Below are positions 10,395 to 22,749 of a stretch of DNA of 64,000 nt, piece by piece. Position 1 is the stretch's first letter. Each line of letters starts with the position of its first letter. Position numbers and translations under genes: made by a program. The stretch spans positions 1 to 64,000 of the forward strand of contig NZ_PVZC01000011.1 of assembly GCF_003002095.1 (NCBI RefSeq), written 5' to 3'. A model generated the notes under the pieces. That model worked only from the letters and a program-made list of their open reading frames with translations, did not search any database and was not told where the DNA came from. Source of the stretch: Allonocardiopsis opalescens (GTDB taxonomy: Bacteria; Actinomycetota; Actinomycetes; Streptosporangiales; Streptosporangiaceae).

Positions 10395-10465
10395 GCGGAT
10401 GTAGTTCAATGGTAGAACTTCAGCTTCCCAAGCTGATAACGCGGGTTCGATTCCCGTCATCCGCT
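10395..10465 (+). tRNA. tRNA-Gly (anticodon CCC)
   Basis: A 71-nt cloverleaf: acceptor GCGGATG pairing with CATCCGC, D arm with GTTCAATGGTAGAAC, anticodon stem TCAGC/GCTGA around the loop TTCCCAA (anticodon CCC), and a T arm with GGTTCGATTCC. CCA is not encoded. The 3' part is the integration target of the mobile element. Because of the insertion, the bases downstream of the crossover now come from the element, including a G-U closing pair in the T stem. Confidence 0.95.
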
Positions 10466-10477
10466 CTCACGACGAAG
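10424..10477 (+). repeat. attL: attL of the AICE
   Basis: This 54-bp block runs from the anticodon loop of tRNA-Gly through its 3' end and 12 nt beyond. It matches 22520-22573 except at 10457 (T) versus 22553 (C). Confidence 0.92.
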
Positions 10478-10523: not shown

Positions 10524-10539
10524 GGGGCGGAGGCGGGGC

Positions 10540-10564: not shown

Positions 10565-10565
10565 T

Positions 10566-11699
10566 CTACGTCGGCTCCTCCTCGGCGCCGACCGCGTCGA
10601 GCAGTTCCCGGGCGGCCCGCTCGCCGAGCGCGTCCGCCAGCTGCCGGGCACGGGAGTCACGGGCGTGCAGGTAGCCGAGCGCGGCCCGGGTGGAGGAGTG
10701 CCCCATCCGGTTCATCAGCTCCCGCAGACTCGCCCCGGCTTCGGCCGCGTAGGTGTTTCCGGTATGCCGCAGGTCGTGGAAGTGCACCCCGTCCCGGCCG
10801 ATCGCTTCCAGCGCCTTGGACCAGTAGGCGGAGAAGTTCGACCGGCGCAGCGGCTTGCCCTTGACCCCGACGAACACGAACCCGTCCCGGCCCGATTGGG
10901 CGTACCGGTCCAGGTGCTCTTCCAGGGCCGGAATGATCAGCGCGGGCAGCTGCACGGTGCGGTATCCGGCGTCGGACTTGGGCGTGCCCGGCACCAGCGT
11001 CGCCAGGTCGTACATGGTCTCGCTGACCGTCACGGTGCGGGCCTTGAGATCCAGGTTGCGCCGCCGCAAGCCGGTCAGCTCGCCCCACCGCAGTGACCCG
11101 AAGGTCGCCAGCAGCACCAGCGCCCGGTACCGGGGCGCGATCGCGTCGGCGAGCTTGAACACCTCCGGCACCGACAGCACCGGCCGTTCAGGACTCTTCT
11201 CCTGATCGGCGCCCTCGATCCGGCACGGGTTCTTGCGGATCAGCTCATCCCGCACCGCCGTGTTCAGGATCGCCCGCAGCAGCCGGTACGCCTTAGCCAC
11301 CGTCACCCGGCCGACCTTGCCTTTCAGCCGGGCCGTGCGCCACTTGCGGACATCGCCTTCGCGGATGTCGCTGATCGCCGATTCCGCGAAGGTGGGCAGC
11401 AGGTGCAACCGCAGCAGCCCTTCGTACAACTGCTCGGTCTTCGGACTCACGTCGCGCCCCTGCATCCACTCGGCCGCGTACGCGCCGAACAGGACACCGC
11501 CCGCCTCAGGGCTGATCCACTCGCCCCGAGCGATCTCGGCTTCTTTCAGGCTCAGCCACCGCTTGGCGTCGGTCTTGGTCCGGAAGGTGACCGGAGCCGA
11601 GCGGCGAACGCCGTCCGGTCCTCGATAGCGCGCCTGCCAGCGGCCCGACGCGAGTTGCCGAATGGTCCCGAAGTCGCGTTCCTTGTGCGCACTCGACAT
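10566..11699 (-). CDS. int: AICE tyrosine-recombinase integrase
   Basis: A 377-residue phage-type integrase. About residues 10-60 form an AP2-like arm-binding region (GTIRQLASGRWQARYRGPDG). Residues 75-160 are the SAM-like core-binding domain and 175-370 the catalytic domain. The catalytic set is complete: R204 in GSLRWGEL, H308 and R311 in HDLRH, H334 in MGHSS and nucleophile Y343 in LGYLH. It should recombine attP with the 3' end of tRNA-Gly. It is last of the rep-xis-int cluster; its ATG at 11699 overlaps the xis stop (TGATG), with GTG at 11702 as the alternative. Confidence 0.95.
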   Translation of the reverse strand: MSSAHKERDFGTIRQLASGRWQARYRGPDGVRRSAPVTFRTKTDAKRWLSLKEAEIARGEWISPEAGGVLFGAYAAEWMQGRDVSPKTEQLYEGLLRLHLLPTFAESAISDIREGDVRKWRTARLKGKVGRVTVAKAYRLLRAILNTAVRDELIRKNPCRIEGADQEKSPERPVLSVPEVFKLADAIAPRYRALVLLATFGSLRWGELTGLRRRNLDLKARTVTVSETMYDLATLVPGTPKSDAGYRTVQLPALIIPALEEHLDRYAQSGRDGFVFVGVKGKPLRRSNFSAYWSKALEAIGRDGVHFHDLRHTGNTYAAEAGASLRELMNRMGHSSTRAALGYLHARDSRARQLADALGERAARELLDAVGAEEEPT

Positions 11700-11929
11700 C
11701 ACGCGGCCCGCCGTCCGACACGGATCCCGATCGGCTCGACCACTCCCCCGGCGATCAGCTCCCGGATCGCCGATTCGGGGATGCGCACGTGCCGCCCGAT
11801 CTTGACGAAGGTGATGCGCCGCTCCTCGATCAGCCGGCGCGGGTAGCGCGGGGAGGTGTTGAGCCGTTCGGCCGCCTGCGCCACGGTCAGCAGCCGCTCA
11901 TCCGGACCGATCACCCGCTTGCCGTTCAT
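11699..11929 (-). CDS. xis: Excisionase (MerR/Xis-like HTH)
   Basis: A 76-residue basic protein with a winged HTH of the excisionase type: LLTVAQAAERLNTSPRYPRRLIEERRI, then the wing KIGRHVRIPESAI. It should bind near attL/attR and drive the integrase towards excision. The start ATG overlaps the repSA stop (ATGA) and its own stop overlaps int, so rep-xis-int is translationally coupled, as in pSAM2-like elements. Confidence 0.88.
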   Translation of the reverse strand: MNGKRVIGPDERLLTVAQAAERLNTSPRYPRRLIEERRITFVKIGRHVRIPESAIRELIAGGVVEPIGIRVGRRAA

Positions 11930-13608
11930 GCCGCCTTCCCGGTTGCCGAAAGATCAACTCGCTGCTGTCGGGCCTGCTGGAGTTGCCGCCTGCGTTTGAG
12001 GTGCTGGCCGAGCGAGGCCAGCAGCCGGTGTTCGCGCGGCTTGACGTCGGGGTCGGTCGGTCGCGCCAGCTCCCAGGCGTAGCCCGACGAGCGGACCGGC
12101 CCCGGCGGTGCCGACGAGCCGCCCGGGCCGGGGTGGTCGGGGTCGATGCCGAGGAGGTCCAGGACATAGGCCAGGCGATCCGCCTTGTGGTCGGCCAGCG
12201 TCTTGCCCGACCACTTGCGGGAGACCAGGACGCGCCGCCCGGCGTAGCCGAGGTGCTCGCGCCGGTGGGCCTTGGAGCGGCAGAACCCGGGGCGCATCCC
12301 CGGCTTGGCGTCCTTGGGCGCGATGCCGTAGCGCAGCCAGTTGGCGCACCGCTCCGAGCAGGGTTCGAACTGCAGCGCTGCCATCAGCCGGTCCACGTGC
12401 GCCTTCTGCGCGGGCGTGTCGGCGGCGTGGCATTCGTGCACGTGCTTGGTCAGGTACTTCGCCAGGTACCGCACGCACCGATCCGCGTCCGGCGAGCCCG
12501 CGACGACACCTTTGACATCGACCTGTCGGCCGAAGCGCACCACGTGCAGCGGGGCGGCGCCGGGGTCGGCGTCCAACGCGTCCAGGGCCTCATCCCACGA
12601 GGGCAGGAGTTCCCCGGTGGCCGGGTCGAGGTAGCGGCCGGCGTCGGCGTCCCATGCGGGGAGGTGCGTCCCGTCGTACCGGACGGCGTCCGTCGGTGGC
12701 CACCACACCTGGTGGTAGGTCGCGGCCACGATCTGCTTCACCTCGGCGCGCGGCAGGGTGCCGCGGACGGCGATGTGCAGGTGCGGCGCCAAGCGGCGCT
12801 GCGGCTCCACCGACGCGAAGTACTGGACATCGAACCCGGCGACCCGGCGAAGGTTCTGCACGAACCGGTCCACCAGCTTGGCGAAGTGCAGCGTGTCCCG
12901 CGCCGCCCGCCGGTAGTCGTAGCCGTCGTGGTCCACCGGGGTGCCATCGGAGCGCACCCGGCCGTAGGAATCGAGGGTGAGCGTGATGAACATCGACGGC
13001 CGGAAGGCCTTCCCACTGGCCGGGTCGGTGTAGACGCGGCCGAGAGTCGTCTTGGACATCTGCCGCTTGGGCAGCTCGGCCGCGTCCTGGCGGCGCCGCG
13101 TCGACCGCACCCGACGAGCAGACCGCTCCCCGTCCCCAGACGACGGCGGGGGCGCGACGCGGCCCCGCATCCCGGCCGCCGTGATCTCCTCGTCCAAATC
13201 GGCGATCACCGCATCGAGCCGCGCCAGCTGCCCGGCGTCGGCCGTCCCCTCAGCGGCGATCCGGTCGCGTTCGGCGGTCACCACGGCCCGCCGCTCGATC
13301 CAGTGCTGTTGCAGCTCGGTCGGATCGTCCGGTTCGATCACGGGTTCGGCGTCCAGGTGCCAGCCCTCCCGGCACTGCTGAACCCGCAGCGCGCGCTTGC
13401 GCTTGGCGCAGGCCGGACAGCGGCTCTCCAGCGTCGAACCGCACGGCACATCGATCACGGCCGTCTCACCGGTGGCCAGGTCGACCCGCCGCAGCGACAC
13501 CGGCCGGATGCACACGCCGTGCCGTTCAGCCAGCTGTTCGGCGACCTGCCGGGCGAGCGGCATCGCCATGCGTTCGGCCCGGGTGGTCTTCCCCGTAGGT
13601 GTCGTCAT
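11926..13608 (-). CDS. repSA: RepSA-like rolling-circle replication initiator
   Basis: A 560-residue replication initiator. An N-terminal Cys cluster (C56, C64, C67, C79) could bind zinc. The core carries FITLTLDSYG near 207, the HUH metal motif PHLHIAVRG with H276 and H278, and the tyrosine motif CVRYLAKYLTK at 378-388 (Y381/Y385, K384). A second Cys group (PCSERCANW) follows. It is expected to nick a double-stranded origin of the excised element and start rolling-circle replication. ATG at 13608 is preceded by GGGTGG. It is first of the rep-xis-int cluster. Family assignment is by motif and context. Confidence 0.9.
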   Translation of the reverse strand: MTTPTGKTTRAERMAMPLARQVAEQLAERHGVCIRPVSLRRVDLATGETAVIDVPCGSTLESRCPACAKRKRALRVQQCREGWHLDAEPVIEPDDPTELQQHWIERRAVVTAERDRIAAEGTADAGQLARLDAVIADLDEEITAAGMRGRVAPPPSSGDGERSARRVRSTRRRQDAAELPKRQMSKTTLGRVYTDPASGKAFRPSMFITLTLDSYGRVRSDGTPVDHDGYDYRRAARDTLHFAKLVDRFVQNLRRVAGFDVQYFASVEPQRRLAPHLHIAVRGTLPRAEVKQIVAATYHQVWWPPTDAVRYDGTHLPAWDADAGRYLDPATGELLPSWDEALDALDADPGAAPLHVVRFGRQVDVKGVVAGSPDADRCVRYLAKYLTKHVHECHAADTPAQKAHVDRLMAALQFEPCSERCANWLRYGIAPKDAKPGMRPGFCRSKAHRREHLGYAGRRVLVSRKWSGKTLADHKADRLAYVLDLLGIDPDHPGPGGSSAPPGPVRSSGYAWELARPTDPDVKPREHRLLASLGQHLKRRRQLQQARQQRVDLSATGKAA

Positions 13609-13661
13609 GCGGCCACCCCGACCCCGTTGTCGATGCCGGCCGGGCCCCATAGCGTCGCGGT

Positions 13662-13988
13662 ATGACGTATTTTCCGCGAAAACTTCTGCTGTTTACGGCC
13701 GGTTTCATGCTGATATACGCGTTCCAACTGCCGTACATCGGCGTGTTCGCTCTGCTCGACTGGCTCCGGGTACTGCGCGGCGGTGACCCTCAATTGTTGA
13801 AAAGCCTTTTCGCGAGCTTCGACACCGGCCACTGGATCCAGTCCGCCATTTCCCTGATCATCGGAGTGACCGCCCTCGCCGTGTGGTGGGCGAAGCGTCC
13901 ACGATCCCCTCACGCCGCATCACCACCGAACAGGTCATCCGCACCGGACTCGGCAGGCAATGACCGCAGCGAGGACCCGCGCCCGTAG
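13662..13988 (+). CDS. Small two-helix membrane protein of the AICE
   Basis: A 108-residue candidate on the forward strand between repSA and the translocase gene. It has two clear hydrophobic segments, residues 9-32 (LLLFTAGFMLIYAFQLPYIG) and about 58-78 (IQSAISLIIGVTALAVWW), and a Ser/Pro-rich polar tail. The 5' two-thirds are AT-richer than the neighbours. The 3' end overlaps the convergent translocase gene by 79 nt, so the tail may be artefactual or the gene recently acquired. It could be a spread (Spd)-type protein since AICEs often carry small membrane proteins near tra, but no specific homology is recognised. Confidence 0.5.
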   Translation: MTYFPRKLLLFTAGFMLIYAFQLPYIGVFALLDWLRVLRGGDPQLLKSLFASFDTGHWIQSAISLIIGVTALAVWWAKRPRSPHAASPPNRSSAPDSAGNDRSEDPRP

Positions 13989-15394
13989 TCGGTTTCCATC
14001 CGGGTGATGTCAGAGTCGGTGACGAAGGAGGCCCGCACCCGCAGCGGGTAGGGCGAGGTCTCCAAGCGCACGAAGCCCACACCCGCGCCCATGGCCGGGT
14101 CGGCACTGATCAAGTGGGCATTGCCGCCCCGCTCCCGCGCCCCCTCGCCAAGGATCATGTCCACCTGGGAGGGCTCATCCAGCCGGAGCGCGATCTTGTC
14201 GGGGAACAGGTTGCGCAGGTTCATCACCTCCTTGCGCGGGTCCTGCAATGCCGCCAGCACCGAGAAGCCGACCGCGCGCCCTTGACTCGTGAGGGTGGCC
14301 AGCGCGTTTTCAGCACGGCGGCGGACGTCGCGGTCAGGGTGGTAGGCGGTCAGGAACGCCACCTCGTCCACCACCACCGCGACGAACGGGTCATCGGTGG
14401 TGGGGGTGTGCTTGCGGACCTTCCCGGCGTAGCGGCCCGCGCGCTCCTGCATCTGCACGACGGCGTCTTCCAGCAGGCCCACGGCGGTTTCTGCGGTGTC
14501 GGCGTAGCGGGCGAACAGCCGCCGCCCGAGCGACAGTTCCATCCGCTTGGGATCGACCGCCCACACCTCGGCGACCCCGGCACGGATGGCGGGGAGCATG
14601 GCGCGGATCGCCGACCAGATCACCGACCCCTTCCCGGCCCCGGTCACCCCGGCGACCAGGATGTGCGTGCCGTGCAGCCGCATCCGCCACCACGACCCGT
14701 CCTCAGCGCGCCCCATCGGCAGCGCCGCCAAGTCCACCGCCTCCGGCACCGGCAGCGCCGGGATCACCCCCGACAGGGAGTCACCGCGCGGGAATTCCAC
14801 GACCAGGCGGCGCGGCCCGTCGACCACCACCCGGCACGACGGCGCGTCGAAGCCGTGCGCCAGTGCGAGAACGCGCTTCTCCCACGCCTGCGGCGACGTG
14901 CCCTTGAGCATCCGCACCGACACCCGGTCGACATGCGGAGTGCACCGCACCCGGCCCAACCTGGGGAGGTACTGCCGGTCCTGGTAGAACTCCGCCAACC
15001 CGGCGACCACCATCACCGGCTGCCAGTGCCGCCGGTACACCCAGAAGCGTCGCCACAGCGCCAGCAACCGCCACCCGGCCAGCCGCAGGAACGACGCCCG
15101 CCACAGCCACCACCACACCACCAGGACGACCGGCACCAGGCCCGCGCCGACCAGCGACAGCCACCACGGATCGACCACGACCCCCACCGCCACCACGACG
15201 GCAAGGAGGCCGGTTGCAACCGGGTGCAGCACCACCGCGCCGACCACCCCGGCGATCAGCCGCCACACCCACACCACGATCACGAACACCGCCGGGGTCT
15301 TCACCACCGGACCGGCGAACCGCACCGGCTGCACGACCGACCGCGACACCAGCGGATCGACCGAATCCCCCGGGCGGGAATCCTGCCAGGACAT
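13910..15394 (-). CDS. tra: FtsK/SpoIIIE-type conjugative DNA translocase (TraB-like)
   Basis: A 494-residue protein with two or three N-terminal membrane helices (33-100) and a RecA-like motor domain. Walker A is GVTGAGKGS at 249-257 and Walker B VAVVVDEVAF at 338-347, followed by an ENALATLTSQGRAVG arginine-finger region. This is the single-protein conjugation machine of AICEs: a hexameric pump that moves double-stranded DNA between hyphae. The ATG at 15394 has AGAGG about 11 nt upstream. It is downstream of the pra gene, from which a 9-bp hairpin separates it. Confidence 0.92.
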   Translation of the reverse strand: MSWQDSRPGDSVDPLVSRSVVQPVRFAGPVVKTPAVFVIVVWVWRLIAGVVGAVVLHPVATGLLAVVVAVGVVVDPWWLSLVGAGLVPVVLVVWWWLWRASFLRLAGWRLLALWRRFWVYRRHWQPVMVVAGLAEFYQDRQYLPRLGRVRCTPHVDRVSVRMLKGTSPQAWEKRVLALAHGFDAPSCRVVVDGPRRLVVEFPRGDSLSGVIPALPVPEAVDLAALPMGRAEDGSWWRMRLHGTHILVAGVTGAGKGSVIWSAIRAMLPAIRAGVAEVWAVDPKRMELSLGRRLFARYADTAETAVGLLEDAVVQMQERAGRYAGKVRKHTPTTDDPFVAVVVDEVAFLTAYHPDRDVRRRAENALATLTSQGRAVGFSVLAALQDPRKEVMNLRNLFPDKIALRLDEPSQVDMILGEGARERGGNAHLISADPAMGAGVGFVRLETSPYPLRVRASFVTDSDITRMETDYGRGSSLRSLPAESGADDLFGGDAA

Positions 15395-15446
15395 AAGCTT
15401 GCAGACCTCTTCTCATCTCAGAGCAGGGAACAGAGGAGAGACACCA

Positions 15447-15480
15447 GGGGTGGCCCAGTGCGCCAACACCAGGCCACCCC
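15447..15480 (-). terminator. Hairpin between pra and tra
   Basis: GGGGTGGCC (15447-15455) pairs with GGCCACCCC (15472-15480) over a 16-nt loop, without a T-tract. It could terminate or attenuate read-through from pra into tra. Confidence 0.5.
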
Positions 15481-15495
15481 GCCCGCACCGACCCG

Positions 15496-15903
15496 TCAGG
15501 CCGCGTCCTTCACCGGAGCCGCCCGACGAGCACCACCACCGCCGGGAGCCCGCACCCCGCGCGCCCGGAGCGAATACGCCACCCGCGACCGGCTCCCGAC
15601 CTCCTCCACATACGGAGTGACGGTCATCTGCTCGAACTCCACCGGCCGGAACGGCAGCCCGCCCACCTCATCCGGCAGCGTCGGGCACACCTCGGCGGCG
15701 ACCTTGACCTTCACCGACTTCGCCTTGCCGCGTGCGTTCGGGTCGGCATCGATCACCTCGACCGCCCACACCGGCAGCCCCGTCGCCTTGTCGATCTGCG
15801 GCCGCTTCGTCTCGAAGTCCGTCACCGCCTCCACACCCAGCGCGTACGCCCCGTGCGGGAACACGAACCCGAACTCCACCGGCACCGGACCCTGAATCGC
15901 CAT
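15496..15903 (-). CDS. pra: Pra-like replication/integration/excision activator of the AICE
   Basis: A 135-residue soluble protein starting MAIQGPVPVEFGFVFPHGAY and containing LPVWAVEVIDADPNARGKAK and LPFRPVEFEQMTVTPYVEE. These blocks recall the protein annotated in many Streptomyces elements as plasmid replication, integration and excision activator, exemplified by Pra of pSAM2. By analogy it switches on repSA-xis-int. ATG at 15903 has GAGG 8 nt upstream. Its promoter region carries a TATGAT box and two inverted repeats, consistent with repression by the neighbouring GntR protein. The molecular mechanism of this family is not visible in the sequence. Confidence 0.65.
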   Translation of the reverse strand: MAIQGPVPVEFGFVFPHGAYALGVEAVTDFETKRPQIDKATGLPVWAVEVIDADPNARGKAKSVKVKVAAEVCPTLPDEVGGLPFRPVEFEQMTVTPYVEEVGSRSRVAYSLRARGVRAPGGGGARRAAPVKDAA

Positions 15904-15936
15904 ATCGACCACCTCACATCATCAGCCGCTCATCCG

Positions 15937-15950
15937 CTTGATCGGACAAG
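15937..15950. promoter_or_regulatory. Operator candidate at the pra transcription start
   Basis: CTTG-ATCGGA-CAAG is an inverted repeat that begins at the predicted +1 of pra (15951 on the reverse strand). A related palindrome precedes the GntR gene at 16765-16784, suggesting one regulator for both. Confidence 0.5.
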
Positions 15951-15957
15951 TAGCTAG

Positions 15958-15991
15958 ATCATATGCGACCACTCGACCGGACGAGTGGTCG
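15958..15991 (-). promoter_or_regulatory. pra promoter with overlapping inverted repeat
   Basis: On the reverse strand TATGAT (15963-15958) is a consensus -10. A perfect 10-bp inverted repeat, CGACCACTCG/CGAGTGGTCG (15966-15991, 6-nt spacer), covers the spacer and -35 region. It also lies 20 nt beyond the gntR stop, so a terminator role is an alternative. Confidence 0.55.
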
Positions 15992-16011
15992 AAGTGAGTG
16001 ACGTGGGTCAC

Positions 16012-16746
16012 TCAGGTGATGGTGTAGCTGTCCTCAAGCTCGTTCAGGTCCCCCGGCAACGTGATGTCGAGGGCGACGATCGGCTGACCGGCCGCGTCAT
16101 AGACGGTCGCCACGATGCCCAGCACCGGCGACCCTGGCGCCAGACTCAGCGCGTCCGCCTCCTCGGACGTGGCCGCGCGAGCGCACAGCCGCTCGGTCAC
16201 CCGCACCGGCCGCAGCTGCTTCAAGGCGAACAGGTGAGCCCGCACCGACACCGAAAGCGGCGCCGCCTGCCCCAGGTCGGTGCCGGCCGCCACGTCCAAC
16301 GGCGCCCACACCGACACCAAGCGCCCCGACGCGCCTTCACCGTCCGCGCTCACCCGCCGCCGCAGCACCGCTGGCGCCCCGTCCGGAATCCCCAGCGCAC
16401 CCGCCACCCGCGCCGGGACATCGGCCCGCCCGGCGAACGCAATCACGGTGCCCAGCGCCGACTCCGCCGCATCGTAGGCCGCCTCAGCGGTGCGCGCCCG
16501 ATCAGACGGCTTGGTCGGGTCGCCCTTCACATACGAGCCCCGACCGTGCTCACGGTCGATCCACCCCTGCATCTTCAACATCTGCAAGGCCCGCACCACC
16601 GTGCTGCGCCCCGCCCCGAACTCCCGCACCAACTGGGACTCCGAGGGCAGCATGGCCCCGGGCGCGTACGTGCCGTCGGAGATCCGCCGCTGAATCGCCT
16701 GCACGATCCGCGCGTACTTGGGAGGCGCGAACTCCATCTCCGACAT
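16012..16746 (-). CDS. GntR/HutC-family repressor (KorSA-like)
   Basis: A 244-residue regulator with an N-terminal winged HTH (residues 8-75: PKYARIVQAIQRRISDGTYA, LPSESQLVREFGAGRSTVVR, HGRGSYV) and a UTRA ligand-binding domain (about 95-240). In pSAM2-like elements the GntR protein KorSA represses its own gene and pra, keeping the element integrated. The location directly upstream of pra, and palindromes before both genes, fit that role. ATG at 16746 has AGGCGG 8 nt upstream; the in-frame ATG at 16737 is less likely. The UTRA effector is unknown. Confidence 0.88.
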   Translation of the reverse strand: MSEMEFAPPKYARIVQAIQRRISDGTYAPGAMLPSESQLVREFGAGRSTVVRALQMLKMQGWIDREHGRGSYVKGDPTKPSDRARTAEAAYDAAESALGTVIAFAGRADVPARVAGALGIPDGAPAVLRRRVSADGEGASGRLVSVWAPLDVAAGTDLGQAAPLSVSVRAHLFALKQLRPVRVTERLCARAATSEEADALSLAPGSPVLGIVATVYDAAGQPIVALDITLPGDLNELEDSYTIT

Positions 16747-16764
16747 AACGACCGCCTGACGACT

Positions 16765-16784
16765 CTAGTACTCATGTGCACAAG
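16765..16784. promoter_or_regulatory. Autoregulatory operator candidate of gntR
   Basis: CTAGTACTCATGTGCACAAG is an imperfect palindrome (14 of 20 positions symmetric) centred 29 nt upstream of the GntR start codon. It resembles operators used by GntR repressors of AICEs. Confidence 0.5.
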
Positions 16785-16827
16785 CACCCTAACCCGCGCC
16801 CGGCCAACCTGTCAGGAGCACCCCGCA

Positions 16828-17220
16828 TCAGGGCACCGGCAGCACCCGCCACCCCTCTTCCACCAGCTCCCCGTGCACCCGGTGGCCGACCTCGGGACGA
16901 CGAACCGCACCGAACCCGTCCGCCAGCAGCGACACGATCCCCGGCCAGTACTGTTCACCCACCGCCGCAGGCCGGTCAGTCGGCGCTGTGCCGTCATCAC
17001 GCACATCGATACGCACCCGATCGCCCTCGATCCCGACGAGCAGCCGCACATCGTGACCATCAGTGGTGTTGCGCAAGGCGTTCGCCACCAGCTCCGACGC
17101 CACCAGTTCGGCATCCCGCACCCGAGGATGATCCCGCAGCAGACACCCCACCACCCGCCGCGCCAACGGCACCGCCGCCGGAGTCGCCGGGAAGGTCAGC
17201 ATCAATTCCACCCCGCTCAC
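16828..17220 (-). CDS. HATPase_c_2 (RsbW-like) ATP-binding protein
   Basis: A 130-residue stand-alone GHKL ATPase domain. The N box reads AELVASELVANALRNTTDG and the G1 box VRIDVRDDGTAP. This small type, very common in Streptomyces and its elements, resembles anti-sigma kinases such as RsbW/SpoIIAB, but partners are usually unknown. GTG at 17220 forms a GTGA overlap with the stop of the upstream BldC-like gene, so the two are translationally coupled. Upstream in-frame extension encodes the other gene's shadow and was rejected. Confidence 0.8.
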   Translation of the reverse strand: MSGVELMLTFPATPAAVPLARRVVGCLLRDHPRVRDAELVASELVANALRNTTDGHDVRLLVGIEGDRVRIDVRDDGTAPTDRPAAVGEQYWPGIVSLLADGFGAVRRPEVGHRVHGELVEEGWRVLPVP

Positions 17221-17585
17221 GCCTCCTCCCATCCATCCCAGCCGCGTTCCAACAGCTCCCGGACCGGGCCGGCCAGAAACCGGCGACGACCGCCAACAGT
17301 CCAGGTCGAGGGCAACCGGCCCTCCCGAGCCCACCGGTTCACCGTCTTCACATGCACCTTGAACAAGCCCGCCACCTCACTGGGCAGCAACAGATCAGGC
17401 AGTTCACCCGTCGACGTCACCGGCACCCGACGCGGCGGCAAGGCATCCGGGTGAAACCACCACTGGCCGCTCACGTTCACCGCCGCCAGCTCACCTGACG
17501 CGGCCAAGGCCACCAACTCACCCGGCTCATACCGAGTCCGCCGAGCCGCTAAGGACACACTGATCAGCACGTCACCCGACGCCAT
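17217..17585 (-). CDS. BldC/MerR-like helix-turn-helix protein
   Basis: A 122-residue protein whose C-terminal half is a MerR-type HTH: LLPSEVAGLFKVHVKTVNRW, AREGRLP, then a wing GGRRRFLAGPVRELL. This is the BldC/excisionase-type DNA-binding fold. The N-terminal half, with RRTRYEPGELVALAASGEL, may contain a second degenerate HTH. ATG at 17585 has GGAG 9-10 nt upstream; the longer frame up to 17876 is not protein-like. It is coupled to the downstream ATPase gene. It probably regulates element functions; the target is unknown. Confidence 0.75.
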   Translation of the reverse strand: MASGDVLISVSLAARRTRYEPGELVALAASGELAAVNVSGQWWFHPDALPPRRVPVTSTGELPDLLLPSEVAGLFKVHVKTVNRWAREGRLPSTWTVGGRRRFLAGPVRELLERGWDGWEEA

Positions 17586-17900
17586 CACAACCCCACTCCA
17601 CCACCGACGAACAACCGACAAGCCGCGCGACCGAGGCACCATCGGGAGGGGACACCCCGGCCGCGCGGCGGCACTTGGAAGGAGGCCCGGCGCCCGCTCT
17701 CCCACAGACACCGGACCCCCAGAAAGAGAGGCGGGTCGACGCCGCAGGGACAGGTACACAACGCCGACCCGCCAGCCGCCCGAGGCGGCACCCTCCGCGT
17801 CACCGCACCAGCGGCGCCCCAACCCGCACGCGAAGGGGAAGCCCTCAGCCCGGGCGAAGGGGTGCGTCACACACACCCGCGGCCAAGGGCACGACCACAG
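17586..17900. other. Non-coding stretch with a 9-bp inverted repeat
   Basis: No gene is convincing in these 315 bases. GGCGGGTCG (17730-17738) and CGACCCGCC (17765-17773) form a hairpin that could terminate the small-gene cluster transcribed towards it from 18834. The promoter of the BldC-like gene should also lie here. Confidence 0.5.
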
Positions 17901-18224
17901 CTAGGAACGAGCGGACACCGCAGGCTCAAGCACCCGATCCACCCGCCGAGCGAACTCCCCCACCTCATCCACCGGCACCACCGGATCCAGATCCCCCACA
18001 TCCCCCGGATCCGCATCAGGAGCCGGCGCCCACCACACGCACCACCACAACCGACCGCCATCCGCAAGATTCGGCCGCAGGGCAACCCGCTCCTCGCACA
18101 CACCCCGCCACACCCGCAGCGTCAGACCCTCCGCCCGCAGCTCGTGATCGATCCCCCGCAGCCGCAGCGCCTCAGCCAGCTCCACCAGCGCCCCAGCAGC
18201 CGACACCGCCCCGGCCACGCTCAC
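17901..18224 (-). CDS. Small hypothetical protein of the AICE
   Basis: A 107-residue soluble protein, unrecognised. It contains LVELAEALRLRGIDHELRAE and a Trp-rich strand LWWCVWWAPAP, then an acidic region and a final amphipathic helix (EVGEFARRVDRVLEP). GTG at 18224 overlaps the upstream gene's stop (GTGA), which supports both being real and co-translated. Pairs of about 107-residue proteins of this style are frequent accessory genes in actinomycete elements. No catalytic motif is visible. Confidence 0.65.
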   Translation of the reverse strand: MSVAGAVSAAGALVELAEALRLRGIDHELRAEGLTLRVWRGVCEERVALRPNLADGGRLWWCVWWAPAPDADPGDVGDLDPVVPVDEVGEFARRVDRVLEPAVSARS

Positions 18225-18544
18225 GCCGCACACCCCAACCGCGCCAGACCCGCGATGATCCGCTCGCCGAGTTCGTCACCCACGGGCATCGCCACCTCGG
18301 CCACCGGCCGCACCTTCTCCACCGGCCGACGCCGAGGCAACCGCGCCTCCAACACCGCCGACAGCTCCGCAGGGCTGTCCGCACACACCCAACCGCCCCG
18401 CGGTCCCCGACCCGCACCGACCGCCCACACCCGGCCCGTCACCGAACTACGCCACACCCGCCAACCCGGAAACGCCGCCCGGACCGCCACCAACTCACCC
18501 GAACCACCAGCACGACCCGCAGCCGACCCGACCGCACAACCCAT
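18221..18544 (-). CDS. Small hypothetical protein of the AICE (FPGWRVWRS motif)
   Basis: A 107-residue protein with the pattern ELVAVRAAFPGWRVWRSS, WAVGAGRGPRGGWVCADS, ELSAVLEARL, a layout I associate with short Streptomyces hypothetical proteins found in mobile elements. The function is unknown. The ATG at 18544 has an excellent ribosome-binding site (GGAGG, 6-nt spacing), which decides it over the longer frame to 18655. It is translationally coupled to the next small gene. Confidence 0.7.
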   Translation of the reverse strand: MGCAVGSAAGRAGGSGELVAVRAAFPGWRVWRSSVTGRVWAVGAGRGPRGGWVCADSPAELSAVLEARLPRRRPVEKVRPVAEVAMPVGDELGERIIAGLARLGCAA

Positions 18545-18615
18545 GACACACCTCCGCCCTACTCGACCCGCCCGAACCCGCGACGACCCGCTTCCGGCGC
18601 CTCCACCGATCGCCA

Positions 18616-18834
18616 TCACGCCGCAGCCCGCCCGGTCCCCCGACACGCCCAGCACTCATCACGACGCGACGTCGGAACACCCGCCATCCCAGGAAGCTGC
18701 ACAACGACACCCCGCCGCTGATGCACCGTCTTCCAACCACGGCCACGACAGTTGCGGCAGGGGTTCGGCGTGGTGGGTTTCTCGGAGTGCTGCACGGAAC
18801 GACGTCCTCTCGTAGCTGCGTCATCACGGGACAC
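18616..18834 (-). CDS. Small DnaJ-type zinc-finger protein
   Basis: A 72-residue protein with two CxxCxGxG repeats, CRNCRGRG and CWACRGTG, separated by about 25 residues. This matches half of the DnaJ cysteine-rich zinc domain. Such free-standing mini zinc proteins are common in actinomycete integrative elements; their role is unknown. The GTG at 18834 lacks a clear ribosome-binding site, so the start is uncertain. It heads the run of small reverse-strand genes that continues with those starting at 18544 and 18224. Confidence 0.6.
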   Translation of the reverse strand: MSRDDAATRGRRSVQHSEKPTTPNPCRNCRGRGWKTVHQRRGVVVQLPGMAGVPTSRRDECWACRGTGRAAA

Positions 18835-18861
18835 GCAGGCTACGGCGGCACGAAGCGTGCA

Positions 18862-18882
18862 ACCCGAACTCTCAGTTCGGGT
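18862..18882 (-). terminator. Terminator-like hairpin after the XRE-TPR gene
   Basis: ACCCGAACT (18862-18870) and AGTTCGGGT (18874-18882) form a perfect 9-bp stem with a CTC loop, just beyond the stop codon at 18900. Confidence 0.7.
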
Positions 18883-18899
18883 GAGCCGATAGTCCGGAT

Positions 18900-20114
18900 C
18901 TACTCGAACAGCCCAATCCGGTTCGCAAGTGCCCGAACCTGTCGCGCATACGACGGTCGCGCCCGCTTCACCAGGCCGCGCACGAGGTCACGGGCCAACA
19001 GGTTGTACTTGAGGTCTTCCGGGCCTGTCTCTTCGGCGTTCAGCAGATGAACGAAGACGCCGGAGTCGTTGCGCCGTTGCTCGTAGCACCTGGCGACTTC
19101 CAAGGAGAAGGTCGTCTGCCGCTCGATCGACGCGGCCGATGTGGCATCGACGTCATCGGCAAGCCGGAGAGCCTCCGACGCCTCTCCGGTCTCCATTTCA
19201 ATGCTTACGGCGTGGAGCTGCACGTTGGTGGGACCGAAGACGGTCCACATGACGTTGCCCTCTCCGACCTTCCGCGCAGCGGGTAGCGCGCGTTCGCGGA
19301 GATGGTCACGCGCCGCCCAATGGTCGCCGTTCCGGACCGAGGCGACGGCACTTGTGAGCCAGAGGGCACCTTGCATGGCGAGGCTTTCCCGGCTCTCCCC
19401 TGCCGTGCGCTTCAGATCCTCGATCGCACGAACAGCGGTTTCCTCAGCGCCATCAGGCGCGTTCTCATCATCTTGAGCCAGTAGGACGTGCGCGAGGTTC
19501 CACCGTGCCCCAGCGACCCTGATCGGGTCATCCGCTTCCTGAGCGGCCATGAGTCCGCGATCGGCGACCAACAAGGAGAGATCGACGCGCCCGATCCGCT
19601 TAGTGAACGTACGCAGCAAAAAGTACAGATCTGCTGCGATGCGAGACGCCTCACGACGTTGGTCAGCGGCTGCGCTCGAATCCCGTACTGCCGCCTGCAC
19701 GTCCATGACAAGGTCGGGAAGAAGGGCCGACGACTCCGTATACCGATTCGGAGAGGACTGCCAAATCTGCCACGCGCTGTTGACTCGGTTCCGTAGTGAC
19801 TCCAAGTCCACCGTTCCTGAACTTCCCTGACCACCACCCAGGATCAATGCCCGATTGATCGCCGAGGAGACCGGATGCGTCTCGCCGTCCTGTCGAATCG
19901 GCGACTCTCCCAGCAGCGAGGCCATCGGAACGTTCAAAATCCGCGCGAATTTATGCAACAGATTGATCGTCGGCGACTTCAAACCGCGCTCGATCTGCGA
20001 AAGATAGTCCTCGCTGACACCGGCAAGACCGGCGACCACAGCTTGCGTCTTCCTCTGACCGGTCCGGTAGAACTTGATGCGCTCTCCGACGGGAATCTCA
20101 GGCGTAGAACTCAT
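18900..20114 (-). CDS. XRE-family HTH regulator with TPR-like domain
   Basis: A 404-residue regulator. Residues 9-65 form an XRE/Cro HTH (RIKFYRTGQRKTQAVVAGLAG, VSEDYLSQIERGLKSPTINL). The rest is an all-helical, TPR-like sensor region (examples AGARWNLAHVLLAQDDENAP and ARDHLRERALPAARKVGEGN). This architecture is abundant in Streptomyces and often flanks small metabolic genes. It is divergent from the HAD-flavoprotein pair, which it presumably controls. ATG at 20114 with AGGAAG about 8 nt upstream gives the canonical N-terminus. Its base composition is lower in GC than the AICE core genes. The ligand is unknown. Confidence 0.85.
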   Translation of the reverse strand: MSSTPEIPVGERIKFYRTGQRKTQAVVAGLAGVSEDYLSQIERGLKSPTINLLHKFARILNVPMASLLGESPIRQDGETHPVSSAINRALILGGGQGSSGTVDLESLRNRVNSAWQIWQSSPNRYTESSALLPDLVMDVQAAVRDSSAAADQRREASRIAADLYFLLRTFTKRIGRVDLSLLVADRGLMAAQEADDPIRVAGARWNLAHVLLAQDDENAPDGAEETAVRAIEDLKRTAGESRESLAMQGALWLTSAVASVRNGDHWAARDHLRERALPAARKVGEGNVMWTVFGPTNVQLHAVSIEMETGEASEALRLADDVDATSAASIERQTTFSLEVARCYEQRRNDSGVFVHLLNAEETGPEDLKYNLLARDLVRGLVKRARPSYARQVRALANRIGLFE

Positions 20115-20215
20115 CTCGCCGCTTCCTTGCTGATCATGATCCGACCGACAGGGCAAGGCCAAGCCAGTGCACCGAGCCGGGACACAGCCGACGCCGACTA
20201 GGGCACACTAGCCGC

Positions 20216-20923
20216 ATGAGCAAGCTCCAACTGGTGCTGTGGGACATAGACCACACACTCATTGAGACCGGGGGCGTCGGCCGGGAGGTCTTCGGCGCCG
20301 CCTTCCAGGCCGCCACCGGTATACCCATGCGCGACATGGTCCACGCCAGCGGCCACACTGAGCCGCAGCTCTTCAGCGAGACGCTAGAGATGCACGGCAT
20401 CGAGGAGCAGCCCCACCACTTCGAGACCTTCGCCCGCGTACAGGCCGAGGAGTACCACCGCCATGCCGGGGCGCTCCGATCCAGAGGACGCGTTCTACCC
20501 GGCGCCGCTTCCGCACTACGGCAATTGGCAGAACATCCGACAATCGTGCAGTCGGTATTGACCGGAAACACGCGTGCCGCCGCCATAGCAAAGCTACAAG
20601 CATTCGGAATCGCCGATGCTCTGGATCTTGACATCGGCGCCTATGGGGACGACAACACCGATCGCGCTGAACTGGTACGCATAGCCCAAGATCGGGCAGC
20701 AAGCAAACATAACGTCGAATTCGACCGCGAAAGTACCGTGCTAGTCGGCGACACAGTCCGCGATGTAGCCGCTGGACACGATGGAGGAGCACGAGTCATC
20801 GCAGTGACATCGGGATCGACCTCAGCAGACGAACTTCGTGAGGCAAACCCGGAAATTGTCGTTCCTGATCTGTCGGACGTAGTGGACACGCTAGTCAAGG
20901 ACCACGACATTCGGCAGTCTTAA
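20216..20923 (+). CDS. HAD-superfamily phosphatase
   Basis: A 235-residue haloacid-dehalogenase hydrolase with all four motifs: nucleophile D8 with D10 in LWDIDHTL, motif II Thr in QSVLTGN, a Lys in AAAIAKLQ and acidic motif IV VLVGDTVRDVAAG. A helical C1 cap (about 15-85) resembles phosphoglycolate phosphatase-like enzymes. The substrate is a small phosphomonoester, identity unknown. It is the first of two forward genes, 23 nt before the flavoprotein gene, with the XRE regulator divergent. GC falls visibly in the second half of the gene, hinting at separate ancestry from the AICE core. Confidence 0.85.
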   Translation: MSKLQLVLWDIDHTLIETGGVGREVFGAAFQAATGIPMRDMVHASGHTEPQLFSETLEMHGIEEQPHHFETFARVQAEEYHRHAGALRSRGRVLPGAASALRQLAEHPTIVQSVLTGNTRAAAIAKLQAFGIADALDLDIGAYGDDNTDRAELVRIAQDRAASKHNVEFDRESTVLVGDTVRDVAAGHDGGARVIAVTSGSTSADELREANPEIVVPDLSDVVDTLVKDHDIRQS

Positions 20924-20946
20924 GCCAAGAAATCCAAGGAATCTGG

Positions 20947-21489
20947 GTGCCCAAACGGAGAACTCTTTACATTGTCGTGTGCGCAGCGGGCCCCGCAAGG
21001 CAAGTCAGTAGTTTGGTGGAACAAGCGCAACTGCGCGGATTTGATGTTCAAGTAATTGCAACACCAGCCGCTACAGACTTCATCGACATTGCAGCTCTAG
21101 AGGAACAGACCGGAAGACGTGTACGTAGCCGTCACCGAAGTCCGGGACAACCTAGGTCACCCAAGGCTGACGCCGCCATCATCGCCCCGGCAAGCGCCAA
21201 CACGATCAATAAGCTCGCCAACGGGATAGCAGATAACTACGCACTCGACGTACTAACCGAGTTGATCGGCATGGGCGTCCCAGTGGTTATTCTCCCGTTC
21301 GTTAACACCGCACTAGTCAATCGCCATCCATTCGATAGAAGCGTAAATACGCTTCGCCGGGAAGGTGTGACCGTACTGATTGAAACCGAAGCCTTCAGAC
21401 CCCATGAACCTGGAACAGGACAAGGGAAGCAGGACGAATTTCCATGGGAACTAGCACTCGAATCGGTGACGACCGAAAAGGAAGGTTGA
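20947..21489 (+). CDS. HFCD-family flavoprotein (CoaC/EpiD-like decarboxylase fold)
   Basis: A 180-residue Rossmann-type flavoprotein. The diagnostic PASANT motif of Cys decarboxylases (CoaC, EpiD, LanD) is present in APASANTINKLANGIADNYA, and the N-terminus YIVVCAAGPARQV resembles the FMN-binding start. The usual substrate clamp PxMNxxMW is altered to PFVNTALVN, so the substrate may not be a C-terminal Cys or phosphopantothenoylcysteine. GTG at 20947 has AAGGA 7 nt upstream. It is co-transcribed with the HAD gene; no lanthipeptide precursor or coenzyme A gene is adjacent. GC is clearly lower than the backbone. Function unresolved. Confidence 0.78.
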   Translation: MPKRRTLYIVVCAAGPARQVSSLVEQAQLRGFDVQVIATPAATDFIDIAALEEQTGRRVRSRHRSPGQPRSPKADAAIIAPASANTINKLANGIADNYALDVLTELIGMGVPVVILPFVNTALVNRHPFDRSVNTLRREGVTVLIETEAFRPHEPGTGQGKQDEFPWELALESVTTEKEG

Positions 21490-21541
21490 ATTACACATCA
21501 GCGTGACAGCCTAGATCAATCAATTCTATTTGACCACAGGC

Positions 21542-21577
21542 AGCCCCAGTGGGGTCTATTTCTTTTCTTTCTTTTTT
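21542..21577 (+). terminator. Terminator after the flavoprotein gene
   Basis: A short CCCC-AGT-GGGG hairpin (21544-21554) is followed by a 23-nt pyrimidine tract rich in T. The tract doubles as the codons for the Lys-rich C-terminus of the convergent membrane-protein gene. Confidence 0.6.
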
Positions 21578-21978
21578 ACTCGCTCCTTTATTGTAAAACT
21601 GTCCAACACTCCATACGTTGCCACTAGGGCCACAAAGGCGCAAGCCACACCTAGAAGCCAACTCCACCAAACCCCTTGCCCAAAGAGGAAGATCGAAGAA
21701 TATCCAAATGCAACCGCGAGGATAATAGCAAAAACTCCGAGGCCCACCTCTCTACTTCCGGTCTCCTCCCGAGCCCGGAGCCTCGCAGCCTGCCATTCGA
21801 CATGCTGCATTATAGATGCACGCGCGTCGCTATTCTCAGGCAACTCCTTCAATAGCTCGATATCGTGCCGCAGGTTTCTGCGTATTCTGCTTTGACCGAG
21901 CAGCATAGGCACGATTGCCGCAATTCCAGGTATCAGCGCCGATAGCAATGCAGCAATGCTTGACACATTCACGGCCAT
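21556..21978 (-). CDS. Low-GC small membrane protein, unknown function
   Basis: A 140-residue protein: an N-terminal helix (ALLSALIPGIAAIVPMLLG), an amphipathic cytosolic stretch with ELLKELPENSDARASIMQHV, two more membrane helices (about 76-95 and 100-122) and a Lys-rich tail KERVKKKEKK. Its composition is far lower in GC than anything nearby. No motif is recognised. ATG at 21978 has no ribosome-binding site; a TGTGTAATAT extended -10 directly upstream would instead fit a leaderless GTG two codons in (21972). It is the last gene before the non-coding right end of the AICE, convergent with the flavoprotein. Confidence 0.68.
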   Translation of the reverse strand: MAVNVSSIAALLSALIPGIAAIVPMLLGQSRIRRNLRHDIELLKELPENSDARASIMQHVEWQAARLRAREETGSREVGLGVFAIILAVAFGYSSIFLFGQGVWWSWLLGVACAFVALVATYGVLDSFTIKERVKKKEKK

Positions 21979-22025
21979 ATATTACACAGCCAGAAAGGGC
22001 GAAGTTGCCGAATCCGGCTGTACTG

Positions 22026-22137
22026 GATCAAGCGCGACGGCGCTCCGCGCCGTCGCGGCCGCCCGCTCGGCGGGCTGCGGGCTGGCGCCCGGTCCCGCCG
22101 AGCGAGCGGGTGGCGACGTAGGCCGTGGCGCTTGATC
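22026..22137. repeat. Branched inverted-repeat structure (candidate origin or transfer locus)
   Basis: An outer 10-bp repeat GATCAAGCGC/GCGCTTGATC (22026-22035, 22128-22137) encloses two perfect hairpins: GCGACGGCGC/GCGCCGTCGC (22034-22056, 3-nt loop, sharing two bases with the outer arm) and CGCTCGGCGGG/CCCGCCGAGCG (22064-22104). No gene overlaps it. Such a nested fold resembles single- or double-strand origins, or a clt locus, of rolling-circle elements. Confidence 0.6.
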
Positions 22138-22224
22138 AGTTGCCGATATACGGACGCGTGGCGGAGCTGCGCCGCGTATGCCGGGCGTTGCGGTCTGGCC
22201 CATGGATCAGCTGATGGCGTTCCC

Positions 22225-22249
22225 CCTGGGGGCCTTGCCGGCCCCCAGG
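22225..22249. repeat. Second hairpin in the AICE right-end non-coding region
   Basis: CCTGGGGGCC (22225-22234) and GGCCCCCAGG (22240-22249) form a perfect 10-bp stem with a TTGCC loop. The whole interval 21979-22519 has no credible gene. Confidence 0.6.
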
Positions 22250-22396
22250 CCCCCGGCTGCCCAGGACGACCCGTCTCGGCATTGGTCCCTGTCCCCGGTT
22301 CTCGCCGTAGCCGAGCCGGGCCGCCCTGGTTCTGGGCGTCGGTGAGGTGGCGGCAGGAGGAGAAGCGCGCCCAATGGCGCGTGTGACGATGCTTTC

Positions 22397-22421
22397 GGCG
22401 TGCCCCACACGTGCCCCACGG
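22397..22421. repeat. Putative integrase arm-type site, right end
   Basis: An identical 25-bp copy, same orientation, of the sequence at 10540-10564, containing two GTGCCCCAC units, 98 nt inside attR. Confidence 0.6.
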
Positions 22422-22519
22422 GGCGGGTGATCATGGGGAAATGCGGGGAATCACGGGGTGATCGTTAGTGTCGCCACAGGTCAGCGTGTTGGCTGGTCAC
22501 CGAGTTTCGCGGGGATCGA

Positions 22520-22573
22520 CTTCCCAAGCTGATAACGCGGGTTCGATTCCCGCCATCCGCTCTCACGACGAAG
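22520..22573 (+). repeat. attR: attR of the AICE
   Basis: The displaced 3' end of tRNA-Gly: 54 bp matching attL with a single C/T difference at 22553. No 5' tRNA half precedes it, so it is not a second tRNA gene. The similarity to the left end continues into the tRNA terminator up to about 22618; 22619-22749 holds nothing recognisable. Confidence 0.92.
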
Positions 22574-22749
22574 CCAGGTCAGACGGTGGTTACTGGCGAC
22601 CTGGGCCTTGTCATTTGGCGGCGGGAACGGGGCCGTGTGCCAGTTCCGTGGCACACCGCGGCATGCGGGGATGCGTGGTCCGGGGCAGTGCGCTTGACCT
22701 CCTTCGTCGGTGCCAGCCACGTGCACGGATCGACGCGCTTCGCCGATGG

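What the first reader, a model, noticed from the sequence alone, without database searches (positions are those of the whole stretch)
18900..21978. Lower-GC cargo module: XRE-TPR regulator, HAD phosphatase, PASANT flavoprotein, small membrane protein
The four genes differ in composition from the AICE core, are bounded by terminators, and couple a predicted phosphatase with an HFCD flavoprotein whose substrate clamp (PxMNxxMW) is replaced by PFVNTALVN. No CoA-pathway or lanthipeptide gene is near, so the reaction is open: a nucleotide or peptide modification, a defence or signalling function are all possible. This is my best candidate for an undescribed system in the window.
Basis: partly seen in the sequence, partly recalled or inferred. 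Interest (0 to 1): 0.7.

Follow-up and report, generated by a model that had tools for sequence, protein, structure and literature searches.

The report
Swappable regulator-enzyme module in mobile element
This stretch is a small control unit carried by a self-transferring DNA element of an actinobacterium: a sensor-like gene switch paired with small enzymes that related elements swap for other enzymes, which suggests, but does not show, an enzyme-based self-sensing system of mobile DNA.

Summary
They lie at one end of a 12.15-kb pSAM2-type AICE (10424-22573) bounded by a 54-nt repeat in tRNA-Gly(CCC). They are not a lone oddity. HTH-TPR (XRE) regulators of this family sit, in AICEs, plasmids and viral contigs, beside one of four unrelated small enzymes: HAD phosphatase, HFCD-fold flavoprotein, ABM monooxygenase or Nudix hydrolase. 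This holds for 47 of 78 regulator loci fetched from the family; about 1-2 would be expected. Partner type follows regulator clade (13 label changes; shuffled mean 71). Similar AICE backbones carry different partners. The window regulator belongs to the HAD clade; its flavoprotein belongs to the clade found in AICE XRE-flavoprotein pairs, so the window is a hybrid. The flavoprotein has the HFCD fold but not the decarboxylase His position or the PxMNxxMW clamp. The membrane gene is not part of the module. Best reading: an interchangeable AICE control/immunity module, comparable in role to pSAM2's Nudix protein Pif, with a TPR sensor folded like RRNPP receptors. Element, linkage and exchange are shown; ligand, operator and phenotype are inferred. 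XRE and Nudix genes of AICEs were already described; I did not find the other partners described as alternatives.

The parts
10424..10477 (+). attL: 54-nt direct repeat, covering the 3' part of tRNA-Gly(CCC) (tRNA 10395-10466)
   Evidence: 98% identical to 22520-22573
10566..11699 (-). tyrosine integrase of the AICE
   Evidence: Pfam PF00589 E 2.7e-21
11926..13608 (-). RepSA replication initiator (pSAM2 type)
   Evidence: Pfam PF20199 E 2e-99
13910..15334 (-). FtsK/TraB-like transfer protein
   Evidence: Pfam PF01580 E 2.8e-7; homologues beside RepSA in other AICEs
15496..15903 (-). conserved AICE protein of unknown family ('P15496' here)
   Evidence: no Pfam match; 72-83% identical in other AICEs with flavoprotein- or ABM-type modules
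16012..16737 (-). GntR/UTRA regulator (KorSA-like position)
   Evidence: Pfam PF00392 and PF07702
18900..20114 (-). HTH-TPR (XRE family) regulator, 404 aa
   Evidence: HTH_3 E 2.4e-9; AlphaFold2 model pLDDT 87.1, all-helical repeat domain 96-404; in the HAD clade of the regulator tree
20115..20215 (.). 101-bp divergent intergenic region, expected site of the operator (inferred)
   Evidence: no motif shared across 15 such regions was found
20216..20923 (+). HAD subfamily IA phosphatase with intact DxDxT (D10, D12, T14) and GDxxxD (D179, D183) motifs
   Evidence: Pfam; column counts over 43 homologues
20947..21489 (+). HFCD-fold flavoprotein; N85 of the PxSxNT motif kept, decarboxylase His position and PxMNxxMW not kept
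   Evidence: Pfam PF02441 E 1.7e-18; model pLDDT 93.8; CoaBC 6tgv Z 22.2; columns
22520..22573 (+). attR

Best explanation
The locus is an interchangeable regulator-enzyme control module of a pSAM2-type AICE. A TPR-XRE regulator and an HAD phosphatase share a 101-bp divergent control region (HAD type). A flavoprotein gene, taken from the AICE XRE-flavoprotein type, follows the HAD gene and is probably read with it. Proposed mechanism: the regulator represses its own gene, the HAD-flavoprotein genes and probably the neighbouring transfer genes; its TPR domain binds a small ligand or the partner enzyme itself; the enzyme makes, alters or removes that ligand, so that the resident element senses itself and limits replication, transfer or the entry of like elements. 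SHOWN: the element and its ends, conserved linkage, exchange of partner enzymes on similar AICE backbones, clade-specific pairing, hybrid make-up, folds. INFERRED: the operator, the ligand, the enzyme reactions and the transfer or immunity phenotype.
For: AICE with integrase, RepSA, FtsK/TraB and GntR between direct repeats in tRNA-Gly. Regulator loci: 47 of 78 fetched loci have an adjacent ABM (24), flavoprotein (11), HAD (7) or Nudix (5) gene; the window genome holds 7 ABM, 4 PF02441, 15 HAD_2 and 30 Nudix matches in 6.97 Mb, i.e. about 1-2 expected by chance if there are some 6,300 genes (my estimate). Pairing follows the regulator tree: 13 changes over 133 rows, shuffled mean 71.3, 0 of 200 shuffles as low. 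Backbone against the window's own: flavoprotein-type AICEs TraB 63-67%, RepSA 69-72%, P15496 78-82% (6 loci); ABM-type TraB 63-66%, P15496 72-83% (8 loci) and RepSA 64-72% (5 of the 8 scored). In 8 of 8 ABM-type AICE loci that reach RepSA the regulator lies next to P15496 with no GntR, while the flavoprotein (6), HAD (2) and Nudix (1) loci with P15496 keep a GntR between: the regulator can stand in the KorSA-like place. Phylogeny: window regulator among HAD-paired ones, nearest 73% identical, HAD-paired; window flavoprotein in a 17-row clade, 98/100 support, with 6 AICE XRE-flavoprotein rows. Published: AICE XRE and GntR proteins are listed as repressors of transfer and Nudix as preventing redundant transfer (PMC11706625, section 27 read); Pif of pSAM2 (PMC3218068, passages). 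Fold: regulator model against Rap (Z 18-19), NprR (16.6), AimR (16.2); Foldseek top hit ComR.
Against: No transfer, immunity or binding experiment. 31 of 78 regulator loci have no such partner, and 0 of 41 partnerless regulators in the wider set have an AICE core gene in their locus, so the regulator family is broader than the module. Only 26 of 89 partner-bearing regulators have an AICE core gene within the fetched stretch (many stretches are short). The wider HAD family is not linked: 0 of 18 places at 36-46% identity, against 6 of 6 at 50-53%. 20 of 61 flavoprotein loci lack an adjacent regulator. No shared operator was found. TPR folds are common: the best Z scores (20-22) are to unrelated eukaryotic TPR proteins. 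Four unrelated enzymes do not point to one substrate.
Confidence: 0.5

Rival explanations
1. Metabolic or detoxification cargo: HAD and flavoprotein act on a host metabolite and the regulator only controls them; transfer is not involved.
For: HAD and flavoprotein are enzyme folds; HAD motifs are intact. In L016, L025 and L082 a regulator-flavoprotein pair sits beside a conserved set of metabolic genes (named in L082; same order and sizes in the other two). 41 partnerless regulators show no AICE core genes.
Against: Partner enzyme exchanged while the place in the AICE is kept; in ABM-type AICEs the regulator takes the GntR place; module also on plasmids and viral contigs.
Confidence: 0.22
2. 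Addiction (toxin-antitoxin-like) pair that stabilises mobile elements: the XRE protein is the antitoxin, the enzyme the toxin.
For: Two-gene units with overlapping or divergent genes on AICEs and plasmids: 4-bp overlap in 24 of 24 ABM pairs and in 5 of 5 annotated XRE-flavoprotein operons on plasmids.
Against: A 404-aa TPR regulator is unlike a small antitoxin; enzymes are often found without a regulator (20 of 61 flavoprotein loci); HAD and Nudix resemble housekeeping hydrolases; no toxin family matched.
Confidence: 0.1
3. Anti-phage defence module.
For: Carried by mobile elements; AICEs are reported to carry phage-defence genes (PMC9513070, passages).
Against: PADLOC: no match for HAD and flavoprotein, only HTH matches for the regulator and a weak 1TM match for the membrane protein. 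Regulator relatives sit in 61 Streptomyces/Thermobifida phage records themselves, beside lysis genes, and in 3 of the 4 looked at also near an integrase. No systematic defence-neighbour test was run.
Confidence: 0.08
4. Modified-peptide signalling: the flavoprotein decarboxylates the C-terminal cysteine of a peptide that the TPR regulator senses.
For: HFCD fold closest to CoaBC, TvaF, EpiD and MrsD; regulator fold resembles peptide receptors ComR, PlcR and Rap.
Against: The position aligned with the decarboxylase His is R70 in the window and R or K in 57 of 72 homologues; the clamp Met and Trp are missing; no conserved peptide gene was identified (no dedicated search was made).
Confidence: 0.05

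Closest known systems
pSAM2 Pif and the AICE nud-xre gene cluster (Ghinet et al. 2011, PMC3218068; also PMC11706625)
   Same: Small phosphohydrolase beside a large NsdA-like XRE regulator in AICEs; AICE backbone with RepSA, FtsK/TraB, KorSA-like GntR and tyrosine integrase.
   Different: Nudix replaced by HAD plus HFCD-fold flavoprotein here, by ABM in other AICEs. The published cluster also has an HD-type phosphohydrolase, which I did not find in the window.
RRNPP(A) receptors (ComR, PlcR, NprR, Rap, AimR) of Bacillota and their mobile elements
   Same: N-terminal HTH (absent in Rap) with C-terminal TPR superhelix; regulators of conjugation and lysogeny on mobile elements; predicted fold similar.
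   Different: No pheromone gene identified; sequence match to solved structures is to the HTH part; the neighbour is an enzyme.
HFCD flavoproteins (CoaC/CoaBC, EpiD, MrsD, TvaF)
   Same: Fold (CoaBC 6tgv Z 22.2, 164 residues, 2.4 A; TvaF 6jls Z 21.7) and the PxSxNT asparagine.
   Different: Catalytic His position and PxMNxxMW clamp not kept; separate clade.
HAD subfamily IA phosphatases (PhnX-like, phosphoglycolate phosphatase; 2hcf)
   Same: Complete HAD motifs; best NCBIfam match PhnX-like 46.8 bits; best solved relative 2hcf E 9e-16.
   Different: All NCBIfam matches far below cut-off; substrate unknown.

Membership tests
AICE (pSAM2 type) | Tyrosine integrase, RepSA-type initiator, FtsK/TraB-like transfer protein, GntR regulator | tested here: met
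AICE (pSAM2 type) | Site-specific integration in a tRNA gene with flanking direct repeats | tested here: met
   54-nt repeat, 98%, in tRNA-Gly(CCC)
AICE (pSAM2 type) | Excision and conjugal transfer | not testable with these tools
   needs experiment
HFCD cysteine decarboxylase | HFCD fold | tested here: met
HFCD cysteine decarboxylase | Catalytic His (EpiD H67 position; role recalled) | tested here: not met
   By the sequence alignment the position is R70, R/K in 57 of 72 homologues; the nearby H63 is His in 18 of 72, else mostly Tyr, Trp or Phe. The loop alignment is uncertain.
HFCD cysteine decarboxylase | PxMNxxMW substrate clamp | tested here: not met
   PFVNTALVN; the Asn is kept in 55 of 72
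HFCD cysteine decarboxylase | FMN binding | not testable with these tools
   fold only
CoaC / CoaBC | Passes the curated model | tested here: not met
   TIGR00521 62.8 bits against 219.7; TIGR02113 49.2 against 261.4
HAD superfamily phosphatase | DxDxT, Thr/Ser, Lys and GDxxxD motifs | tested here: met
   T116 (T/S 43 of 43), K126 41 of 43, D179 43 of 43, D183 42 of 43; D10 31 and D12 34 of 43 (Asn in most others), all present in the window
RRNPP receptor | HTH plus TPR domain | tested here: met
   HTH_3; helical repeat 96-404, Rap/NprR/AimR Z 16-19, but eukaryotic TPR proteins score higher
RRNPP receptor | Adjacent pheromone propeptide gene and peptide binding | not tested
   no dedicated small-peptide search was made
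Pif-type conjugal immunity | Nudix hydrolase | tested here: not met
   No Nudix match (own-genome search) lies in the window's AICE; Nudix partners occur in other AICEs
Pif-type conjugal immunity | Blocks entry of the same element | not testable with these tools
   needs mating assay
Known anti-phage system | Match to PADLOC-DB models beyond the HTH | tested here: not met
   (library of 2023)

The most novel reading that the evidence does not exclude
Actinobacterial mobile elements (AICEs, linear and circular plasmids, temperate phages) share a combinatorial self-sensing system: a TPR-XRE receptor plus interchangeable and stackable small-molecule enzymes (HAD, Nudix, HFCD flavoprotein, ABM). 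The enzymes define an element-specific chemical identity signal, so that a resident element recognises itself and excludes or silences its like: a non-peptide counterpart of RRNPP/Phr and arbitrium control. Stacking occurs in both directions: HAD+flavoprotein (window, L108), Nudix+flavoprotein (L001, L010, L012, L082), Nudix+HAD (L111, L168). A bolder form is that the enzymes converge on flavin nucleotides (Nudix on FAD, HAD on FMN, the flavoprotein as FMN carrier).
Probability: 0.2. Interest if true: 0.85.

Novelty: new variant of a known kind. Interest (0 to 1): 0.5.

Why it matters
Conjugal immunity by Pif has had a known gene but, according to PMC3218068 (2011, passages read), an unknown mechanism. 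If the Nudix place can be taken by HAD, flavoprotein or ABM, each tied to its own TPR-regulator clade, the comparison gives a natural set of swaps with which to ask what the enzyme does for the element. If true, it would extend intracellular TPR sensing of mobile elements from peptide signals in Bacillota to enzyme-linked signals in Actinomycetota.

Tried and rejected
Operator search: k-mers of 8-12 shared by 15 XRE/HAD intergenic regions; at most 3 regions shared any 8-mer, two of them near-identical viral contigs. Rejected as evidence.

Viral contigs: single-protein scans with regulator and flavoprotein found no relatives; HAD gave 3 loci, each with a divergent XRE. A profile scan with alignment A1 could not run. 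Flavoprotein in phage records: no match.

Four-gene unit: rejected, because the membrane protein has few relatives and no homologue was found in the 116 other loci examined before that search, apart from two loci of the window itself.

CoaC/CoaBC identity: rejected. Defence: no support, but neighbours were not scanned systematically. VIA-align rows: families not listed are not excluded.

Early number corrected on recount: the set of 68 flavoprotein loci (48 with adjacent XRE) includes loci fetched because of the regulator. The flavoprotein-selected set is 41 of 61; L007/L104 and L011/L057 are the same places, giving 40 of 59. The 78 regulator loci come from 80 regions asked for among the top of the ranking; some high-ranking places were not fetched again (three HAD-type ones, L090, L092 and L093, were already in hand), L145 was returned under its old id and not counted, and L163 had no called regulator. 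In the regulator tree two plasmid rows in the HAD clade are labelled 'none' only because an IS lies between (L109) or my gene caller failed (L113). Three HAD-labelled rows lie outside the HAD clade on long branches.

Papers: PMC3218068 (section 12 and passages), PMC11706625 (section 27 and passages), PMC9513070 and PMC13118837 and PMC7159879 (passages); others only as search listings. PMC2440964 is not held. The statement that HAD, flavoprotein or ABM are not described as alternatives rests on paper searches in an open-access library only. PMC9513070 names a flavoprotein among AICE cargo.
Full report
Observation. The four genes are present as described. The regulator most likely starts at ATG 20114. 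GC3 falls from 0.88-0.91 in the core AICE genes to 0.71 (regulator), 0.66 (HAD), 0.50 (flavoprotein) and 0.53 (membrane protein). Terminator evidence is weak.

The element. A 54-nt direct repeat, 98% identical, lies at 10424-10477 and 22520-22573; the left copy covers the 3' part of tRNA-Gly(CCC). Between them are tyrosine integrase, RepSA, FtsK/TraB-like protein, a conserved protein without Pfam match ('P15496') and a GntR/UTRA regulator. The window genome is in the same family-level group as genomes whose contig lengths (286,857 and 85,687) equal those of Marinactinospora and Thermobifida records, so it is probably a relative of these (inferred).

Linkage of the HAD gene. Among the places, the six homologues at 50-53% identity all have an adjacent TPR-XRE gene, five of them divergent, as in the window, and one (L091) in an operon with another XRE divergent. 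Eighteen places at 36-46% identity have none in the stretch seen, so the linked HADs are a subfamily. On plasmids 39 records match the HAD. In the 25 listed, comparison with the 40 listed regulator rows gives a divergent XRE within 150 bp in 20; in L109 an IS element has come between; in L110 the XRE is about 1.6 kb away; L111 has an overlapping XRE-HAD operon; L108 has XRE-flavoprotein-HAD in a row; H65 was not examined. Many of these plasmids are near copies. Three IMG/VR contigs carry the divergent pair too.

Linkage of the flavoprotein gene. In loci fetched because of the flavoprotein, 41 of 61 have an XRE-family gene next to it (40 of 59 after removing two duplicated places); on five annotated plasmid stretches the genes overlap by 4 bp. 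Exceptions include three AICEs without XRE (L005, L010, L012), two of which have a Nudix gene before the flavoprotein.

Four exchangeable partners. I fetched 80 regions around regulator homologues in the family. Of 78 loci with a called regulator, 47 have an adjacent partner of one of four kinds: ABM 24, flavoprotein 11, HAD 7, Nudix 5 (families confirmed on representatives). All 24 ABM genes overlap the regulator gene by 4 bp. The window genome has 7 ABM, 4 PF02441, 15 HAD_2 and 30 Nudix matches, so 1-2 such neighbours would be expected. On the regulator tree (133 rows) partner type needs 13 changes, shuffled mean 71.3, none of 200 shuffles as low: one Nudix clade (5 of 5), one ABM clade (25 of 26), a HAD clade of 16 rows (14 labelled HAD) with the window in it, and several flavoprotein clades. 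Three HAD-paired regulators fall elsewhere on long branches, so HAD pairing may have arisen more than once.

Same backbone, different module. AICEs of flavoprotein type (L002, L004, L006, L008, L105, L106) and ABM type (L169, L178, L180, L182, L199, L201, L205, L212) have backbones about equally close to the window's (TraB 63-67%, P15496 72-83%). HAD-type AICE stretches are L148 (P15496 81%, GntR 55%) and L149 (55%, 47%). In all eight ABM-type loci the regulator lies beside P15496 with no GntR between, whereas the flavoprotein-, HAD- and Nudix-type loci with P15496 and a regulator (6, 2 and 1) have a GntR between. This suggests that the TPR-XRE protein can do the job of the KorSA-like GntR, a published repressor of transfer functions (PMC3218068 section 12). 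Against over-reading: none of 41 partnerless regulators has AICE core genes in its locus, and only 26 of 89 partner-bearing ones do within the stretch fetched.

The window is a hybrid. Its regulator and HAD belong to the HAD type (nearest regulator 73%). Its flavoprotein lies in a 17-row clade (98/100) with the flavoproteins of six AICE XRE-flavoprotein pairs; their cognate regulators are about 26-30% identical to the window's. No flavoprotein lies beside the HAD in the other HAD-clade stretches listed. Enzyme stacking is seen elsewhere too: XRE-flavoprotein-HAD (L108), Nudix with flavoprotein (L001, L010, L012, L082), Nudix with HAD (L111; L168, where the HAD is partial).

Proteins. Regulator: AlphaFold2 pLDDT 87.1 from 13 sequences. 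Foldseek's first hit is ComR (E 1.1e-4), with PlcR and phage Rap in the list, among eukaryotic LGN TPR structures. VIA-align gives RapF Z 18.8, phage Rap 17-18, NprR 16.6, AimR 16.2, but unrelated eukaryotic TPR proteins reach 20-22, so this shows a TPR superhelix, not RRNPP membership. By sequence the profile matches solved structures mainly through the HTH. Flavoprotein: pLDDT 93.8, HFCD fold with CoaBC Z 22.2 and TvaF 21.7. Of 72 homologues, Asn85 is kept in 71, Pro117 in 72, Asn120 in 55; the aligned His position is Arg/Lys in 57; position 63 is Tyr 35, His 18, Trp 11, Phe 6. It is therefore unlikely to be a standard cysteine decarboxylase; the set includes two CoaBC-like outliers. HAD: DxDxT, T/S, K and GDxxxD motifs intact in the window.

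Explanation. I commit to an AICE control/immunity module (confidence 0.5; I would put about 0.85 on the weaker claim that it is an exchangeable regulator-enzyme module of mobile elements). Regulator relatives are also found in 61 phage records; in the four looked at they lie after lysis genes, in three of them near an integrase, without HAD or flavoprotein neighbours.

Known and new. AICE XRE (NsdA-like) and Nudix genes and the mdp-nud-xre cluster are published (PMC3218068), and AICE XRE proteins are listed as repressors and Nudix as preventing redundant transfer (PMC11706625), which also reports diDNase genes next to an HTH gene in about two thirds of cases: possibly a fifth partner. A flavoprotein was named among AICE cargo (PMC9513070). 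I did not find the exchange of HAD, flavoprotein, ABM and Nudix beside one regulator family described (searches; open-access papers only). Hence: new variant of a known kind.

Noticed in passing
L016, L025 (genome contigs), L082 (plasmid NZ_CP108158): An XRE-flavoprotein pair beside a conserved cluster annotated in L082 as glycosyltransferase, two dCTP-deaminase-like genes, metallophosphoesterase, UDP-GlcNAc 1-carboxyvinyltransferase and ATP-binding protein; same order and sizes in L016 and L025. Possibly a nucleoside-related pathway.
   Followed up: partly
window 10480-10562 and 22574-22656; 10539-10564 and 22396-22421: Beyond the att cores an 83-nt stretch is repeated at 77%, and a 26-nt stretch exactly: the chromosome right of attR resembles the left end of the element, perhaps a trace of an earlier element at the same tRNA.
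   Followed up: no
L109, L112, L113 (downstream of XRE); L085, L086, L108 (divergent, upstream): Proteins of 163-187 aa without Pfam match (two tested) beside the regulator on plasmids, weakly related between the two groups.
   Followed up: partly
Streptomyces phages, e.g. L114-L117: Full-length relatives of the regulator (27-33% identical) in 61 phage records, after lysis genes and, in L115-L117, near the integrase.
   Followed up: partly
L109 5597-6739: Transposase gene inserted between XRE and HAD on NZ_CP108986.
   Followed up: no
window genome C7 (L226), C8 (L101), C5 (L100): The same genome has a partnerless TPR-XRE (L226), a second XRE-flavoprotein pair (L101) and a flavoprotein without XRE (L100).
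   Followed up: partly
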